Below are positions 33,831-39,981 of a stretch of 64,000 nucleotides of DNA, piece by piece. Where the stretch lies: contig WLWS01000001.1 in assembly GCA_012103475.1 (NCBI GenBank), positions 558,001 through 622,000 of the forward strand. The letters run 5' to 3'. The position numbers were made by a program, and so were the translations under genes. Each line of letters begins with the position of its first letter. The first letter of the stretch is position 1. This DNA comes from Gammaproteobacteria bacterium (GTDB taxonomy: Bacteria; Pseudomonadota; Gammaproteobacteria; Eutrophobiales; Eutrophobiaceae). The notes beneath the pieces were generated by a model, which made no database searches, was not told the origin of the DNA, and saw only the letters and a list, made by a program, of their open reading frames with translations.

Positions 33831-34580
33831 TCAGTCACTCAGTTGAGCCAGAATCTCATCCGAGATCTCAGCATTGGAATAGACTTTTTGTACGTCATCA
33901 AGATCTTCCAGAACGTCAAGTAAACGTAACATGGATTCTGCGCCCTTCTGCTCCAGGGAGCTGCTGGTTGTTGCCTGCATAGTAACTTCCGCATTCTCCG
34001 GCTGATGATTAGCCTCTACCAGCGCGTCTTTTACATCGACCAGCTGGTCCGGATTGGTGATTACGTCAATCGACCCATCCTCGTTACTGATGATATCTTC
34101 GGCTCCGGCTTCCAGAGCGGCTTCCATCAACGCATCTTCATCTGTGCCGCTCGGATAGGAAATCAGACCTATCTTGTTGAATATATAGGATACTGAACCG
34201 TCCGTGCCCAGATTGCCGCCATATTTTGAGAAAGCATGTCTGACTTCAGCCACAGTCCGGTTTTTGTTATCTGTCATGCAATCGACCATTACCGCCACAC
34301 CACCGGGACCATAGCCTTCGTAACGGATTTCCTCCAGATTGCCGCTCTCATCGTCACCGGCACCACGCTTTACTGCGCGTTCGATAGTATCTTTCGGCAT
34401 ACTCTGCGATTTGGCGCTGTCTATCGCTGCCCGTAGACGCGGATTGGCGTCCGGATCGCCACCACCGAGCTTTGCTGCGATGGTCACTTCACGAATCAAT
34501 TTTGTGAATAATTTCCCGCGCTTGGCATCCTGCCTGCCCTTGCGATGCTGGATATTTGCCCATTTACTGTGTCCTGCCAT
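33831..34580 (-). CDS. yebC: YebC/PmpR family protein
   Basis: The 249-residue protein begins [23 protein letters not shown], the family signature, and has [15 protein letters not shown]-like and YIFNKIG segments. YebC-family proteins have been described as transcription regulators (PmpR) and, more recently, as translation factors at proline-rich stretches. It heads the yebC-ruvC-ruvA-ruvB cluster and is divergent from the DUF547 gene across 133 bp. Confidence 0.95.
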
Positions 34581-34713: not shown

Positions 34714-35475
34714 ATGCGCAAATTTATACCTTTTTCTCTGTTCTGTATCCTGTCTTTGGGATTCTCATCGAGTCTCATTGCCGAAAGCCCGTTAGCCAGC
34801 GATCAATTGCATGAGCCCTTCAGTCAGCTTTTAGCTGAAACTGTTGATAACGGCCATGTTGACTATTCGAAAATCAAAGGCGACGTCCGCTTTGGAAACT
34901 ACCTGAAGGCTCTGCAACAGACCCGACCTGAAAACTACGCAACACAGGAAGAGAAACTCGCTTTCTGGATTAATGCCTACAATGCACTGGCCATTAAGGG
35001 CATCATTGACGGCTTGTCACCGAGTAGTTTTTTCGGAAGAGTGAGTTATTTTAAAACAACAGATTATGAAGTCGCCGGTAAAAGTATTAATCTCTACGAT
35101 CTCGAGAGGGATATTATTATCCCTTTTGACGAACCGCGTATTCACTTTGCTATAGTATGTGCGTCTTATTCATGCCCTAAATTACGTGCGGAAGCGTATT
35201 TGGCAGATACGCTTGAAGCACAACTTGAAGACAACGCGATCGACTTTCTCAACGACCCGGTGAAAAATTCATTCGACGTCAAAAAGAAACGTGCCAATTT
35301 ATCAAAGATTTTTGACTGGTTTGAAAAAGACTTCAAGAGCCATTCAGGTTCTGTACAAAAGTATGTGGCACAGTTTGTCAAAGATAACGGCATAAAATCT
35401 GCCTTAATGAATGAAGACTACAAAGTGAAACATCTTAAGTATCAGTGGACCCTCAATGGCTCCCTGGACAATTGA
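34714..35475 (+). CDS. Exported DUF547 protein, first gene of a six-gene operon
   Basis: The 253-residue precursor has a signal peptide to about residue 24. The DUF547 core follows, with KLAFWINAYNALAIKGI, a middle IHFAIVCASYSCPKLR, and LSKIFDWFEKDF. The conserved Cys in CASYSCP and the Asn/Tyr in WINAYNAL are family-typical. The biochemical role is unknown. It is followed 17 bp later by a ferritin-like gene and then four overlapping or closely spaced genes. Its promoter must lie in 34581-34713, where no clear box was found. Confidence 0.85.
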   Translation: MRKFIPFSLFCILSLGFSSSLIAESPLASDQLHEPFSQLLAETVDNGHVDYSKIKGDVRFGNYLKALQQTRPENYATQEEKLAFWINAYNALAIKGIIDGLSPSSFFGRVSYFKTTDYEVAGKSINLYDLERDIIIPFDEPRIHFAIVCASYSCPKLRAEAYLADTLEAQLEDNAIDFLNDPVKNSFDVKKKRANLSKIFDWFEKDFKSHSGSVQKYVAQFVKDNGIKSALMNEDYKVKHLKYQWTLNGSLDN

Positions 35476-35492
35476 TAAAGATGCTTAGTTAA

Positions 35493-36137
35493 ATGCTACC
35501 AGCAAGCGACGAACGAAAACAGATCGCCCGCCTGTTTAACTTCCTGTTAATGGGAGAACAGCTCGCTCACGACTGTGCGCGACGACAATCGCTTATATTT
35601 GAGGATACGCCATCCCGTCGTTTCCTTCAGGCTCAGGCCCGTCAGGAGGCATTGCACGCAAAAATATTCAAAGCTGGAATTGGTATTCTCGCACCACGTG
35701 GTATCGGCGAACCTCTCGCTCAGACAGAAATGTCCCAGTACCGCTCACTGCTTGAATCTGCACTGGATCGTGGCGACAAACTTGAATCATTGCTGGGTAT
35801 GCAGATCCTTCTTGAAGGTATGGGTGATGTTGCACTGAAACGTATCAGTAGCGGATTCGCCAGCAGAAACCTCGCATTCAATCGGGTTCGCAAACTGATC
35901 GTCGGGCAGGAAGATGCCCATCACAATTTCGGTCTGCGTCGTTTCCAGCAGCTAATCGGCAGTCAAGCTTCTGAATGGCAGGGTATGCGCTACCAGAGTG
36001 AACTCTATCTTGAAGTCCTGAACAATATGCTGCACACACTTCAACCCTTTTTTGAATTTTTTGATGAACATGCTGAGGATTATATTGATGAATTGCAGGG
36101 TATGCTTCCTGCTAACATGAAACTGGCAGTCGCATGA
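35493..36137 (+). CDS. Ferritin-like diiron protein
   Basis: The 214-residue helical protein shows the spacing of a four-helix diiron site: Glu22 (GEQLAH), Glu52-x-x-His55 (QEALHAK), Glu108 (LLEGMG) and Glu140-x-x-His143 (QEDAHHNF). It has no signal peptide, so it should act in the cytoplasm as an oxygenase, oxidase or desaturase-like enzyme. The exact family was not recognised; MiaE-type hydroxylases share the fold. Its stop overlaps the next ATG by 4 bp, so it is coupled to the glycosyltransferase and radical SAM genes. Confidence 0.7.
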   Translation: MLPASDERKQIARLFNFLLMGEQLAHDCARRQSLIFEDTPSRRFLQAQARQEALHAKIFKAGIGILAPRGIGEPLAQTEMSQYRSLLESALDRGDKLESLLGMQILLEGMGDVALKRISSGFASRNLAFNRVRKLIVGQEDAHHNFGLRRFQQLIGSQASEWQGMRYQSELYLEVLNNMLHTLQPFFEFFDEHAEDYIDELQGMLPANMKLAVA

Positions 36138-36811
36138 TTTCCGTCATCATCCCGGTATTAAATGAAGAAAAAGCGCTGCCACAATGTGTGCAAAATCTGC
36201 TTACTCAAGAGTCTGACTTTGAAACCATCATTGTTGATGGTGGCAGTACGGATAATACCAAAGCAATTGCCGGGAATTTCAGAAATGTTCTGTTAGTCGA
36301 TTCACAACGTGGCCGGGCCGCTCAAATGAATACCGGTGCATCCAGAGCAAACAGAGACTGGCTGGTCTTCCTGCATGCCGATACACAGTTACCAGCCAAT
36401 GCTTTGCATGATATAGCGGCACTTTCAGCGGACAAAACTATTCAGGCTGGCTGCTTTCATCAGAAATTTTCAGGTAAACATGTTCTATTACGAAGCATAT
36501 CCTGGCTACACAACTGGCGTTGCAATCGCAGTCGTATAATTTACGGCGATCAGTGTCTATTTATTCGACGGGAGTTTTTTCGCCAGCTTGGCGGCTTTCC
36601 GCAAACTGAAATTCTGGAAGATGTCATGCTCAGTGAGAAAATAGTTGAAGTCACGAGACCCTTGATAATGGGACAGTCTGTAATCACGGATTCACGAAAA
36701 TTTGAGCAACGTGGTATCGTGAAAAGCTTTCTGGAAATATTCATTATTATGTCGTGTTACGAACTGGGATTGCCTGTTAGAGCTCAGGATTTCTTTTCTC
36801 CGGTGCGATGA
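36134..36811 (+). CDS. Family 2 glycosyltransferase (TIGR04283-like)
   Basis: The 225-residue GT-A protein has ISVIIPVLNEE at the start. It continues with VDGGSTDNT and the subfamily block GRAAQMNTGASRANRDWLVFLHADTQLP, then ILEDVMLSEKI. This is the rSAM/selenodomain-associated transferase 2 group, also named an arsenosugar-biosynthesis glycosyltransferase. No arsenic gene is seen here, so the substrate is open. It overlaps its neighbours at both ends by 4 bp. A radical SAM enzyme follows, consistent with that family's usual company. Confidence 0.85.
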   Translation: MISVIIPVLNEEKALPQCVQNLLTQESDFETIIVDGGSTDNTKAIAGNFRNVLLVDSQRGRAAQMNTGASRANRDWLVFLHADTQLPANALHDIAALSADKTIQAGCFHQKFSGKHVLLRSISWLHNWRCNRSRIIYGDQCLFIRREFFRQLGGFPQTEILEDVMLSEKIVEVTRPLIMGQSVITDSRKFEQRGIVKSFLEIFIIMSCYELGLPVRAQDFFSPVR

Positions 36812-37812
36812 CAATGGGTTCATTGCAAACACATATCCAACCGCTGGTTAATTTATTGCAAAAAAAACCTCTGCTGGCTATTTTTGAAATCAATCTGCAG
36901 TGCAATTCGAAATGTGGTTATTGTGATCTACCGCTGAATCAAGGTCGCTATGAATTATCCCGGACAGAAATAAAAAGCATTTTCACTGATCTTTATCACA
37001 ATGGACTTCGCTACGTTTTCATTCAGGGTGGTGAACCGACACTGCGCAAGGATCTTCTCGAGATCATCGGCGATCTGCATCAGACAGGTCTGAAATTATC
37101 ACTCATTACTAACGGCACCCGTTTAACTGAACAGTTCATAGAAGCCCTCGCACAATACCCTGTAGATCTGTCCATAAGTCTTGATACGCTTGACCGTGAT
37201 CTCTACCGGAAAATTCGTGGCGCAGATCAACTTAAGCTTGTTCTGGCGGGACTACAGCGACTACAGGACTACCCGCATCCGAAATACATCACCTGTATCG
37301 TCAGTGCTCAAAACCGGAATAAGGTGCTTGAAGTAGTCAGATTCGCGCGCCAGTCGGGCTTCATGCCTGTTGTTGGCGCCTATCATTGGGACATTGAGCG
37401 TTACGGAAAGGTTGATCCTGAATTACAGTATGAAAACTCTCAGGCAAGAGCGGTGTTTGAAGAAGTAATTGAATCAAATCTGGTGCCCAGAGGTTACTTC
37501 AGAAATTATCTTGAAGATAATGTTCGCTGGTTATCCGGCGATAAACTGAATGCCTGCGATGCAGGTCGTTACAGCATTGCTATCGATGCCTCGGGTAACG
37601 TAGCTGGCTGTCTGGCAATGAGCCATGCTGGTAACCTCAGAGAGCAGAAGCTCAGCACAATTCTTGCCAATATGGACTTTGAAAAAATTGACAACTGTTC
37701 TAATCAGTCTTCCTGCAATATGATGTGTAGCCGCGTAATCGGTTCGAACCTACGCCAGCCAATCAGTGCGATACTGACACCGGTTCGCCTCGAAGAAGAG
37801 ACAATAGCGTAA
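36808..37812 (+). CDS. Radical SAM enzyme with SPASM-like C-terminus
   Basis: The 334-residue protein has the SAM-binding cluster CNSKCGYC (Cys32, 36, 39), a GGEPT motif and a TIM-barrel core. Five further cysteines in the last third (about 250, 268, 297, 303 and 307; ending CNMMC) suggest one or two auxiliary Fe-S clusters of SPASM or twitch type. Such enzymes often modify peptides or small ring compounds. The target is unknown, and no obvious precursor peptide was found nearby. Its ATG overlaps the glycosyltransferase stop, and its stop overlaps the next ATG by one base. Confidence 0.85.
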   Translation: MTMGSLQTHIQPLVNLLQKKPLLAIFEINLQCNSKCGYCDLPLNQGRYELSRTEIKSIFTDLYHNGLRYVFIQGGEPTLRKDLLEIIGDLHQTGLKLSLITNGTRLTEQFIEALAQYPVDLSISLDTLDRDLYRKIRGADQLKLVLAGLQRLQDYPHPKYITCIVSAQNRNKVLEVVRFARQSGFMPVVGAYHWDIERYGKVDPELQYENSQARAVFEEVIESNLVPRGYFRNYLEDNVRWLSGDKLNACDAGRYSIAIDASGNVAGCLAMSHAGNLREQKLSTILANMDFEKIDNCSNQSSCNMMCSRVIGSNLRQPISAILTPVRLEEETIA

Positions 37813-38486
37813 TGAAAAAAAGCAATGTATTTATCGTCTCATTCTGCCTGCTTACGGTCATTTTCTCCTCACATGCTGTTTATTCAAATATCTCTGCGCA
37901 CGAGCATCAAGGCATTCTTACCCCCTATTTGGGTGAACCAGAGAGAATAGTCTTAAAAGAAAAAGATTTTCAGAAACTGAAAAAGGGTAAGGCAATATTT
38001 AAAAAGCAGCTGGTTGGTGATAACAAGCGGGCCGTTGTTATTACCCGGGTGAAAGCCGATTCATCAACAATCTGGTCAGTTATCAAGGACTTTGATTCTT
38101 ACCCTGAGTGGATTGACGACATTAAGTCTATGGAAATCTATCGTCAGGAAGAGAGTACTATCTATGTCCGATTTGATGTTGAGAATCGCTATTCCGGCAA
38201 AGTAACCTGGTATGCCCGCCATAATTACCCCTCTGACTCAAGAGAATGGGGTACCTGGACCCTCGATTATGACCGAATGTCCGATCTTGATGATTCGGTT
38301 GGTTTCTGGCGCGTTAGTATAGATCCGGAAGATCCCGCTTATAGCCTCGTCTTCTATTCCACCTCGCTTAAACTAAAAACCAGAGTACCTCAATTTATCG
38401 TTCGAATTATTATCAACGCGAAACTCAAACAGTCTACTCAGTGGGTTCAACAACAGTCTGAATCGAGAATGACCTCGATGTACTAA
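37812..38486 (+). CDS. Exported SRPBCC (polyketide cyclase/START-like) protein
   Basis: The 224-residue precursor has a signal peptide to about 27. The SRPBCC fold then shows VVITRVKADSSTIWSVIKDFDSYPEWIDDIKSMEI-type sequence, the usual cyclase/lipid-binding opening. A mid-region WYARHNYPSDSREWGTW and a C-terminal amphipathic helix follow. Such domains bind hydrophobic ligands. Being exported, it may carry or mature a lipid-like product of the operon in the periplasm (inference). Confidence 0.75.
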   Translation: MKKSNVFIVSFCLLTVIFSSHAVYSNISAHEHQGILTPYLGEPERIVLKEKDFQKLKKGKAIFKKQLVGDNKRAVVITRVKADSSTIWSVIKDFDSYPEWIDDIKSMEIYRQEESTIYVRFDVENRYSGKVTWYARHNYPSDSREWGTWTLDYDRMSDLDDSVGFWRVSIDPEDPAYSLVFYSTSLKLKTRVPQFIVRIIINAKLKQSTQWVQQQSESRMTSMY

Positions 38487-38504
38487 AACGGTAGGATAGA
38501 AGGC

Positions 38505-38801
38505 ATGATAAAAAGTGCTGAGAAAATCACATCCGACCCGGATAAGCTTCTGAAAAAAAATACAGCACTGGTGCATTCAGACAATCAAAAGGTCGTTTCA
38601 CATGTGCAAAGAGACAGTGGCGACTGGATAGTCAATACCCTCTTAATAGAAGGTAGCGATGTAGCCTTCAAATTCATGCGTAAGCGGGCATACAGAGACC
38701 TCAAAGGTGCGAGGGTGAATATCACTTATTATCCGGACTCTGAAGATGTTGCCGGTATTAAAATAGAGATTATGAAGATAGTCAGAATCAGAAAATCATG
38801 A
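38505..38801 (+). CDS. Small hypothetical protein ending the six-gene operon
   Basis: I do not recognise this 98-residue basic protein. It lacks a signal peptide and cysteines. The middle has VQRDSGDWIVNTLLIEGSDVAFKF and the end IKIEIMKIVRIRK, suggesting a small beta-rich fold. It lies 18 bp after the SRPBCC gene with a TAGGA/GAAGG ribosome-binding region, so it belongs to the same unit. The next gene is convergent 10 bp away. Confidence 0.65.
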   Translation: MIKSAEKITSDPDKLLKKNTALVHSDNQKVVSHVQRDSGDWIVNTLLIEGSDVAFKFMRKRAYRDLKGARVNITYYPDSEDVAGIKIEIMKIVRIRKS

Positions 38802-38811
38802 CATATCGTTA

Positions 38812-39948
38812 TTAGTAACCCTTTTTCATATTTACCACATTCAATAACTTTTCCCCGGCAACATAGCGACGCAGATTCTCCTGAATAAATATCCAGAACC
38901 TTTCCATTACCAGATCCGAACGTGCAGAGATATGCGGAGTGATAATAACATTCGGCATTGCCCAGAGCGGATGGTCCTGCGGCAATGGTTCTGGTTCGAC
39001 AACATCAAGACCGGCACCGGCAAGTTTCCTGTTTCTCAGGGCATTCACTAATGCTTCGGTAACCACACTTTTACCCCGACCAACATTAATAAAATAAGCA
39101 GACGGTTTAAGAACGGCAAAGAATCGCTCATCAAACAGAGCCGTCGTCGCTGTCGTCAGTGGAGTCGTATTCACAATTAGGTCCGCTTCGCTGGCGAGAC
39201 TCAGCAATTCATCGGATAGCCCGACGTAATCAACAAATTCCGGTTTCGCTCGTCGACTGTTGCGACTGGCAATAACGCGCATTCCCAGGCCCCTGGCTCG
39301 CCAGGCAATTTCAGTCCCGATGCCTCCCAGACCAACCAGAAGAAGCGTTTTACCTTTCAACTCCTGCATGGGATAGCGTTGCGCCAGGCTTCGATCCCAG
39401 TTTTTATCAGTTTGTTGTTGTCGAAACTGATGCAGTCCACGGGAAAAAGAAAACATCATGGCAATGACATGTTCGGCAATGCCCGCCCCATAAACGCCTT
39501 TCATGTTGCTTAAGCTGGCCGCGGATTCGATAAAACCCTTATGTGAAGTACACGACTCCACTCCAGCGGTAAAGTGCTGAACCCACTGCAAAGACATCAT
39601 GTCGGAATTAACGAGCGTACAAGTCCCGAGCAAAACCTGCGCATCATTAAGCTTATCTCCGGCCTGATTTATGTCATTCACGACAAGCAGTTCGGCACCA
39701 TCTGCTGCAGACTTTAAACCGGCAAGACGTTTGTCGTCCAGTCCGGCACCAATCCCGGCAGCGACCATGATGATTAGTTTGGGTTTCACCCATTTGCCGT
39801 CCTTTTTTATCGCTTCCGCTGTTTCCCGAATGCTGAGTTCAGAAAGTAACTTGAGAGCCGCTTCATCCGGCTCGCTTGCGTAAAGCGCAGGTGCCGCTAA
39901 GAAACTGGGTAAAAGAAATAGAAGTACTGTCACAAAAACTGAATTCAT
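38812..39948 (-). CDS. Exported D-2-hydroxyacid dehydrogenase-like protein
   Basis: The catalytic fold is a complete NAD-dependent D-isomer 2-hydroxyacid dehydrogenase. It has a VGLGGIGTEIAWRARGLGMRVIA nucleotide site, the Arg in NVGRGKSV, the Glu in DVVEPEPLP and the His in ITPHIS. Unusually, it starts with a clear signal peptide (MNSVFVTVLLFLLPSFLAAPALYA). I chose ATG 39948 because GGGGAA lies upstream; ATG 39966 has none. The first 50 mature residues are an extra acidic helix segment. A periplasmic NAD enzyme would lack free cofactor unless it keeps it bound, so the role is open. Confidence 0.8.
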   Translation of the reverse strand: MNSVFVTVLLFLLPSFLAAPALYASEPDEAALKLLSELSIRETAEAIKKDGKWVKPKLIIMVAAGIGAGLDDKRLAGLKSAADGAELLVVNDINQAGDKLNDAQVLLGTCTLVNSDMMSLQWVQHFTAGVESCTSHKGFIESAASLSNMKGVYGAGIAEHVIAMMFSFSRGLHQFRQQQTDKNWDRSLAQRYPMQELKGKTLLLVGLGGIGTEIAWRARGLGMRVIASRNSRRAKPEFVDYVGLSDELLSLASEADLIVNTTPLTTATTALFDERFFAVLKPSAYFINVGRGKSVVTEALVNALRNRKLAGAGLDVVEPEPLPQDHPLWAMPNVIITPHISARSDLVMERFWIFIQENLRRYVAGEKLLNVVNMKKGY

Positions 39949-39981
39949 TGTTTTATTCCCCGGCATTTTTACTGTGTAATC

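What the first reader, a model, noticed from the sequence alone, without database searches (positions are those of the whole stretch)
34714..38801. Six-gene operon joining DUF547, diiron, glycosyltransferase, radical SAM and SRPBCC proteins
The six genes run on one strand with 4-, 4- and 1-base overlaps and gaps of only 17 and 18 bp. The set combines two oxidative or radical enzymes (a four-helix diiron protein with E22, E52xxH55, E108, E140xxH143; a SPASM-like radical SAM with CxxxCxxC and five extra Cys) with a TIGR04283-like glycosyltransferase. Two products are exported: the DUF547 and SRPBCC proteins. This looks like a pathway that makes, glycosylates and exports or carries a hydrophobic product. 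I know of no described system with exactly this set. The GT family is known to sit near radical SAM/selenodomain and arsenosugar genes, but no arsenic gene is here.
Basis: partly seen in the sequence, partly recalled or inferred. Interest (0 to 1): 0.8.

Follow-up and report, generated by a model that had tools for sequence, protein, structure and literature searches.

The report
Diiron–glycosyltransferase operon, possibly arsenic-linked
A conserved but undescribed bacterial operon pairs a new relative of alkane-making iron enzymes with a sugar-transferring enzyme, and a distant relative of the operon is built into an arsenic-sugar gene cluster, so it may make an unknown arsenic compound.

Summary
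In detail: six same-strand ORFs with the stated overlaps and gaps, the diiron ligand set, CxxxCxxC plus SPASM, a TIGR04283 glycosyltransferase over cut-off, and two probably exported proteins. Five genes (not the 98-aa sixth) recur in the same order in three other gammaproteobacterial genomes, so the operon is real. The core is narrower and older: the diiron protein adjoins one separate clade of TIGR04283 (GT-D) in four families, often with DUF547 upstream. The diiron protein is a new relative of cyanobacterial aldehyde-deformylating oxygenase (ADO) by profile, fold and six ligands, but passes no ADO family cut-off. "No arsenic gene is here" is true only locally: the host carries ArsS, an ArsM-like gene and an ordinary TIGR04283/04282 pair elsewhere, 11 of 12 diiron-bearing genomes have ArsS, and in one relative DUF547–diiron–GT-D runs into a PiT-type permease, ArsS and an ArsM-like gene. 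Best reading: an oxidative plus glycosyl tailoring module for an organoarsenical (arsenosugar or arsenolipid), with a SPASM radical SAM and an SRPBCC protein added in the window lineage. The arsenic substrate rests on one adjacency and a modest co-occurrence; an arsenic-free glycolipid pathway remains a serious rival.

The parts
34714..35475 (+). DUF547 protein, predicted exported (253 aa); invariant H144-x4-C149AS-x2-C154P and N87/N90 motifs
   Evidence: PF04784 E 1.3e-28; orthologues at 49-58% identity in L009, L010, L012, L028, L033 and 28-30% in L026/L027; AF2 pLDDT 87, no PDB fold match at E<=0.001
35493..36137 (+). ADO-like ferritin-fold diiron protein (214 aa), ligands E22, E52, H55, E108, E140, H143
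   Evidence: six ligands and Q32/Q48/Q51/Q104/Q139 invariant in 11 homologues; profile against PDB: ADO E 3.5e-5; AF2 pLDDT 89.5 and Foldseek top 18 all ADO, TM 0.71-0.79
36134..36811 (+). GT2 glycosyltransferase, TIGR04283, GT-D clade (225 aa), 4-nt overlap with the diiron gene
   Evidence: TIGR04283 237 bits, cut-off 182; clade apart from ArsS-linked GTs, 100/98; GT-D model 375-397 bits only in the three diiron-bearing genomes of 53
36808..37812 (+). radical SAM/SPASM enzyme (334 aa), C32xxxC36xxC39 plus C250, C268, C297, C303, C307
   Evidence: PF04055 and PF13186 over cut-off; 63-66% identical orthologues in three genomes; 2 of 369 class genomes, both diiron-bearing; not ArsS by family search
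37812..38486 (+). SRPBCC (START-like) protein with N-terminal export signal (224 aa)
   Evidence: PF03364 over cut-off; 38-46% identical orthologues in the same position; N-terminal hydropathy 2.98
38505..38801 (+). 98-aa ORF, probably coding, lineage-specific passenger of the operon
   Evidence: in-frame codon score 0.096 against -0.227/-0.168 in shifted frames; no family; absent from L009, L010, L012

Best explanation
A rare gammaproteobacterial tailoring operon. SHOWN: a conserved core of an ADO-like diiron protein and a special TIGR04283 glycosyltransferase (GT-D), often preceded by a probably exported DUF547 protein; the window lineage adds a SPASM radical SAM enzyme and a probably exported SRPBCC protein. 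INFERRED: the diiron enzyme uses O2 to oxidise or oxidatively cleave a small organic substrate; GT-D then glycosylates it (or transfers an arsenosugar unit to it); the radical SAM enzyme does one further radical step; the DUF547 and SRPBCC proteins handle the product or its lipid carrier in the periplasm. INFERRED, most likely substrate: an organoarsenical, that is an arsenosugar or arsenolipid derived from the host's own ArsM/ArsS products, because in a related genome the same trio is in one run with a PiT-type permease, ArsS and an ArsM-like gene.
For: Same five genes, same order and tight spacing, in G023, G024 and L012/G797. Diiron directly followed by GT-D in ten loci of families f1, f12, f144, f153 and L012. 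GT-D occurs in exactly the three diiron-bearing genomes of 53 (375-397 bits against at most 203 elsewhere). G215/L028: DUF547, diiron, GT-D, PHO4 permease, ArsS (TIGR04167 457 bits, cut-off 300), ArsM-like methyltransferase on one strand with gaps 6, -4, 15, 13 and 179 nt. Host genome has ArsS beside TIGR04283/04282 on C9 and an ArsM homologue on C17. ArsS in 11 of 12 diiron-bearing genomes against 183 of 369 in the class; Fisher p 0.009 on the 10 sampled ones. ADO kinship of the diiron protein.
Against: Only one locus puts the trio beside ArsS. ArsS is common (half of the class), the association is not corrected for kinship, and G063 has the diiron gene but no ArsS. In the window lineage and in f144 no ars gene is adjacent. 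The window radical SAM is not ArsS. The 'arsenosugar' name of TIGR04283 appears to rest on gene neighbourhood; I found no paper that names or tests it. The diiron-bearing genomes checked already have an ordinary ArsS-linked GT, so GT-D may have been recruited for something else.
Confidence: 0.4

Rival explanations
1. Arsenic-free glycolipid or hydrocarbon pathway: the ADO-like enzyme oxidises a fatty aldehyde or other lipid, GT-D glycosylates the product, the radical SAM enzyme modifies it, and periplasmic SRPBCC and DUF547 proteins carry it.
For: Closest fold is ADO; SRPBCC proteins often bind hydrophobic ligands (general knowledge of the superfamily); no ars gene in the window operon or beside the f144 pair; TIGR04283 resembles lipid-linked GT2 enzymes.
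Against: No acyl-ACP reductase or fatty-acid gene in the operon or its conserved neighbourhoods. The ADO Tyr39 equivalent is invariantly Ala and five invariant Gln sit near the ligands. The trio is built into an ArsS run in G215.
Confidence: 0.33
2. Maturation of a peptide, protein or cofactor: the SPASM radical SAM and diiron enzymes modify a peptide or cofactor that GT-D glycosylates, as in mycofactocin.
For: SPASM radical SAM enzymes are often peptide maturases, and the mycofactocin maturase and GT models match weakly.
Against: No conserved small precursor ORF: the 98-aa ORF is absent from all three sister loci, and the core pair exists without the radical SAM. No mycofactocin model reaches its cut-off (75 against 265 and 45 against 280 bits).
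Confidence: 0.12
3. Stress or repair module: the diiron protein is a peroxide- or NO-scavenging or iron-handling ferritin-like protein that sits beside an envelope glycosylation gene.
For: Ferritin-like fold; probably exported partners.
Against: Profile and fold follow ADO and R2-like oxidases rather than ferritin or rubrerythrin; strict pairing with one GT clade suggests a shared pathway.
Confidence: 0.1

Closest known systems
Arsenosugar biosynthesis locus (ArsM, ArsS/TIGR04167, TIGR04283, TIGR04282)
   Same: TIGR04283 glycosyltransferase over cut-off; a radical SAM enzyme in the run; in G215 the trio is in one run with ArsS and an ArsM-like methyltransferase; the host has the ordinary locus elsewhere.
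   Different: Window radical SAM is a SPASM enzyme, not ArsS; GT belongs to a separate clade; no TIGR04282 or ArsM in the operon; extra diiron, DUF547 and SRPBCC genes.
Cyanobacterial aldehyde-deformylating oxygenase (ADO, PF11266)
   Same: Length, all-helical ferritin-like fold (TM 0.71-0.79), all six diiron ligands in register.
   Different: 16-21% identity; no member passes PF11266; active-site Tyr39 equivalent is Ala; five invariant Gln; no acyl-ACP reductase nearby; partner is a glycosyltransferase.
Mycofactocin cluster (MftC radical SAM, MftF glycosyltransferase)
   Same: SPASM radical SAM next to a GT2 of related sequence.
   Different: No model reaches cut-off, no precursor peptide, different partners.
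R2-like ligand-binding oxidase / RNR beta
   Same: ExxH diiron helical fold, weak profile and structure matches.
   Different: Shorter than R2 proteins, better match to ADO, no RNR context.

Membership tests
TIGR04283 glycosyltransferase | score above the curated cut-off of 182 bits | tested here: met
   237.4 bits; but a clade separate from ArsS-linked members
Arsenosugar biosynthesis cluster | ArsS (TIGR04167) in the cluster | tested here: not met
   window radical SAM does not show TIGR04167 among its 25 best families and the genome's only ArsS match is on C9; met in relative G215/L028
Arsenosugar biosynthesis cluster | ArsM methyltransferase in the cluster | tested here: not met
   absent from the operon; homologue about 0.5 Mb away on C17
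Arsenosugar biosynthesis cluster | organoarsenical product | not testable with these tools
   needs mass spectrometry
Aldehyde-deformylating oxygenase | PF11266 match | tested here: not met
   one of 11 homologues matches, weakly, at E 0.0022; the window protein has no match
Aldehyde-deformylating oxygenase | diiron ligands E, ExxH, E, ExxH in register in the ADO fold | tested here: met
Aldehyde-deformylating oxygenase | active-site tyrosines 39 and 122 (literature numbering, from memory) | tested here: not met
   position 29 is Ala in all 11; position 115 is L/V/I/F; the second position is uncertain because of an alignment gap
Aldehyde-deformylating oxygenase | acyl-ACP reductase partner | tested here: not met
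   none beside the diiron gene in the loci annotated; elsewhere in the genome not searched
Mycofactocin-type peptide system | precursor peptide and MftC/MftF over cut-off | tested here: not met
   75.4 of 265 and 44.7 of 280 bits; no conserved small ORF
SPASM radical SAM | CxxxCxxC core and SPASM cluster cysteines | tested here: met
   PF04055 and PF13186 over cut-off; Cys conserved

The most novel reading that the evidence does not exclude
The operon is a dedicated branch of organoarsenic metabolism in which a new ADO-like diiron oxygenase acts on an arsenic-bearing lipid or sugar and GT-D glycosylates it, giving the first genes for unexplained steps from arsenosugars to arsenolipids (arsenic fatty acids or hydrocarbons).
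Probability: 0.15. Interest if true: 0.85.

Novelty: new variant of a known kind. Interest (0 to 1): 0.55.

Why it matters
TIGR04283 glycosyltransferases, annotated as arsenosugar enzymes, pass their cut-off in half of the gammaproteobacterial genomes sampled, and I found no tested function for them. This operon splits off a clade of them with a fixed oxygenase partner, which makes its substrate experimentally approachable. It also adds a family to the small set of ADO-like diiron proteins. If the arsenic link holds, it would point to genes for steps after ArsS that I found no description of.

Tried and rejected
A scan of named genomes with the single diiron sequence found nothing; the three-row profile found three loci. 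Plasmids: no match. Outside Gammaproteobacteria the diiron profile found only proteins of 372-415 aa that look like RNR beta chains (by length and weak score, not checked one by one), and the weak class hits G080 and G083 (356-375 aa) were set aside for the same reason. DUF547: a confident model but no PDB fold match, so its activity stays open. In the GT tree rows L029_ars0 and L030_ars0 are the diiron-linked GTs picked up twice under a wrong label and L038_ars was probably read in a wrong frame; the clade of interest does not depend on them. The G280 diiron protein (26% identity) is divergently placed beside a different, long-branched TIGR04283 member, so it does not count for GT-D pairing. 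RiPP reading set low for want of a precursor. Paper searches found no description of TIGR04283 or of this gene set.

Full report
Observation. The six ORFs exist at the stated coordinates, on one strand, with spacings 17, -4, -4, -1 and 18 nt. The gene upstream (33831-34580) is divergent and the gene downstream (38812-39966) convergent, so the operon is self-contained. Family searches confirm DUF547, TIGR04283 (237 bits, cut-off 182), radical SAM with SPASM, and SRPBCC; the diiron protein matches no family by cut-off. No consensus promoter or terminator stood out above chance.

Conservation. Among 53 genomes of the host's order the diiron gene is in three, G000, G023 and G024. In G023, G024 and a further named MAG (L012, genome G797) the order DUF547, diiron, GT, radical SAM, SRPBCC is kept with similar tight spacing; the 98-aa ORF is replaced by a glucose/sorbosone-dehydrogenase-like gene or a DUF6436 gene.

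The core is smaller and wider. A class scan found the diiron gene in 10 of 369 genomes after removal of two weak hits that look like RNR beta. Its neighbourhoods show diiron followed by a TIGR04283-like GT in families f1, f12, f153 (with DUF547 before it) and f144 (pair only, after a gamma-glutamyltranspeptidase gene). In G063 the contig ends inside the diiron gene, with DUF547 before it; in G280 the arrangement is divergent and the GT is of another kind. The radical SAM is in only two of 369, both diiron-bearing. The diiron-linked GTs form one clade (100/98) apart from ArsS-linked GTs (two rows of that clade are duplicates under a wrong label). A GT-D profile gives 375-397 bits in exactly G000, G023 and G024 and at most 203 bits elsewhere among 53 genomes; the same three also have the ordinary GT. 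So GT-D and the diiron protein co-occur strictly in this sample.

The diiron protein. E22, E52, H55, E108, E140 and H143 are invariant in 11 homologues down to 26% identity, with Q32, Q48, Q51, Q104 and Q139. The profile's best PDB relatives are ADOs (E 3.5e-5) and the six ligands align with ADO's. The AF2 model (pLDDT 89.5) has ADO as its top 18 PDB matches, TM 0.71-0.79. It is not an ADO by PF11266, and the ADO Tyr39 position is Ala throughout (ADO numbering from memory). Q48 and Q104 lie one helical turn before ligands E52 and E108, on the same face, which suggests (inference) a more polar pocket than a plain alkane enzyme needs.

The arsenic link. In G215 (L028) one strand reads DUF547, diiron, GT-D, a PHO4/PiT-family permease, ArsS (457 bits, cut-off 300) and a methyltransferase whose best model is an ArsM (356 bits; below that model's own cut-off of 500, so ArsM-like), with gaps 6, -4, 15, 13 and 179 nt. 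The host genome has ArsS with TIGR04283 and TIGR04282 on C9 and a 66% identical ArsM-like gene about 0.5 Mb from the window on C17, which overlaps by 4 nt a fatty-acid-hydroxylase-family gene, an arrangement shared with G024. Eleven of 12 diiron-bearing genomes have ArsS, against 183 of 369 overall (Fisher p 0.009 for the ten sampled, not corrected for kinship). ArsM-like genes were found in 10 of the 11 diiron-bearing genomes tested, some as fragments at contig ends, and not in G204. PMC12159101 states that C-As bonds in bacterial organoarsenic natural products are formed by SAM-dependent methyltransferases and radical SAM enzymes (adenosylation in arsenosugar biosynthesis; the arsinothricin enzyme). 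I found no paper that describes what TIGR04283 does or this gene set.

Mechanism. Shown: gene set, order, ligands, fold kinship, co-occurrence. Inferred: O2-dependent oxidation by the diiron protein, glycosyl transfer by GT-D, one radical step by the SPASM enzyme, periplasmic handling by the DUF547 and SRPBCC proteins; organoarsenical substrate at about 0.4, arsenic-free lipid at about 0.33. In the G215 arrangement the permease and ArsS follow GT-D where the SPASM radical SAM and SRPBCC genes follow it in the window, which fits a module whose partners can change.

Verdict.

Noticed in passing
L052:629-2607 (G000:C17 about 1,096,600-1,098,600) and L053:686-2643: The host's ArsM-like gene overlaps by 4 nt a fatty-acid-hydroxylase (PF04116) membrane protein gene; the same pair is in G024. 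A possible lipid link for arsenic methylation.
   Followed up: partly
L044:7935-10225 (G000:C9): Ordinary arsenosugar locus of the host: ArsS, TIGR04283 and TIGR04282, close to flagellar genes.
   Followed up: yes
L055 (G215:C13:45774-46389): A second ArsM-like copy in G215 is split, with an in-frame TGA; decayed copy, sequencing error or selenocysteine not resolved.
   Followed up: no
window:34714-35475: The DUF547 model is confident (pLDDT 87) but has no PDB fold match at E<=0.001, so the domain may be a fold without a solved structure.
   Followed up: partly
L029, L030, L031: In family f144 the diiron–GT-D pair follows a gamma-glutamyltranspeptidase gene in all three genomes (in L031 judged by sequence likeness only).
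   Followed up: no
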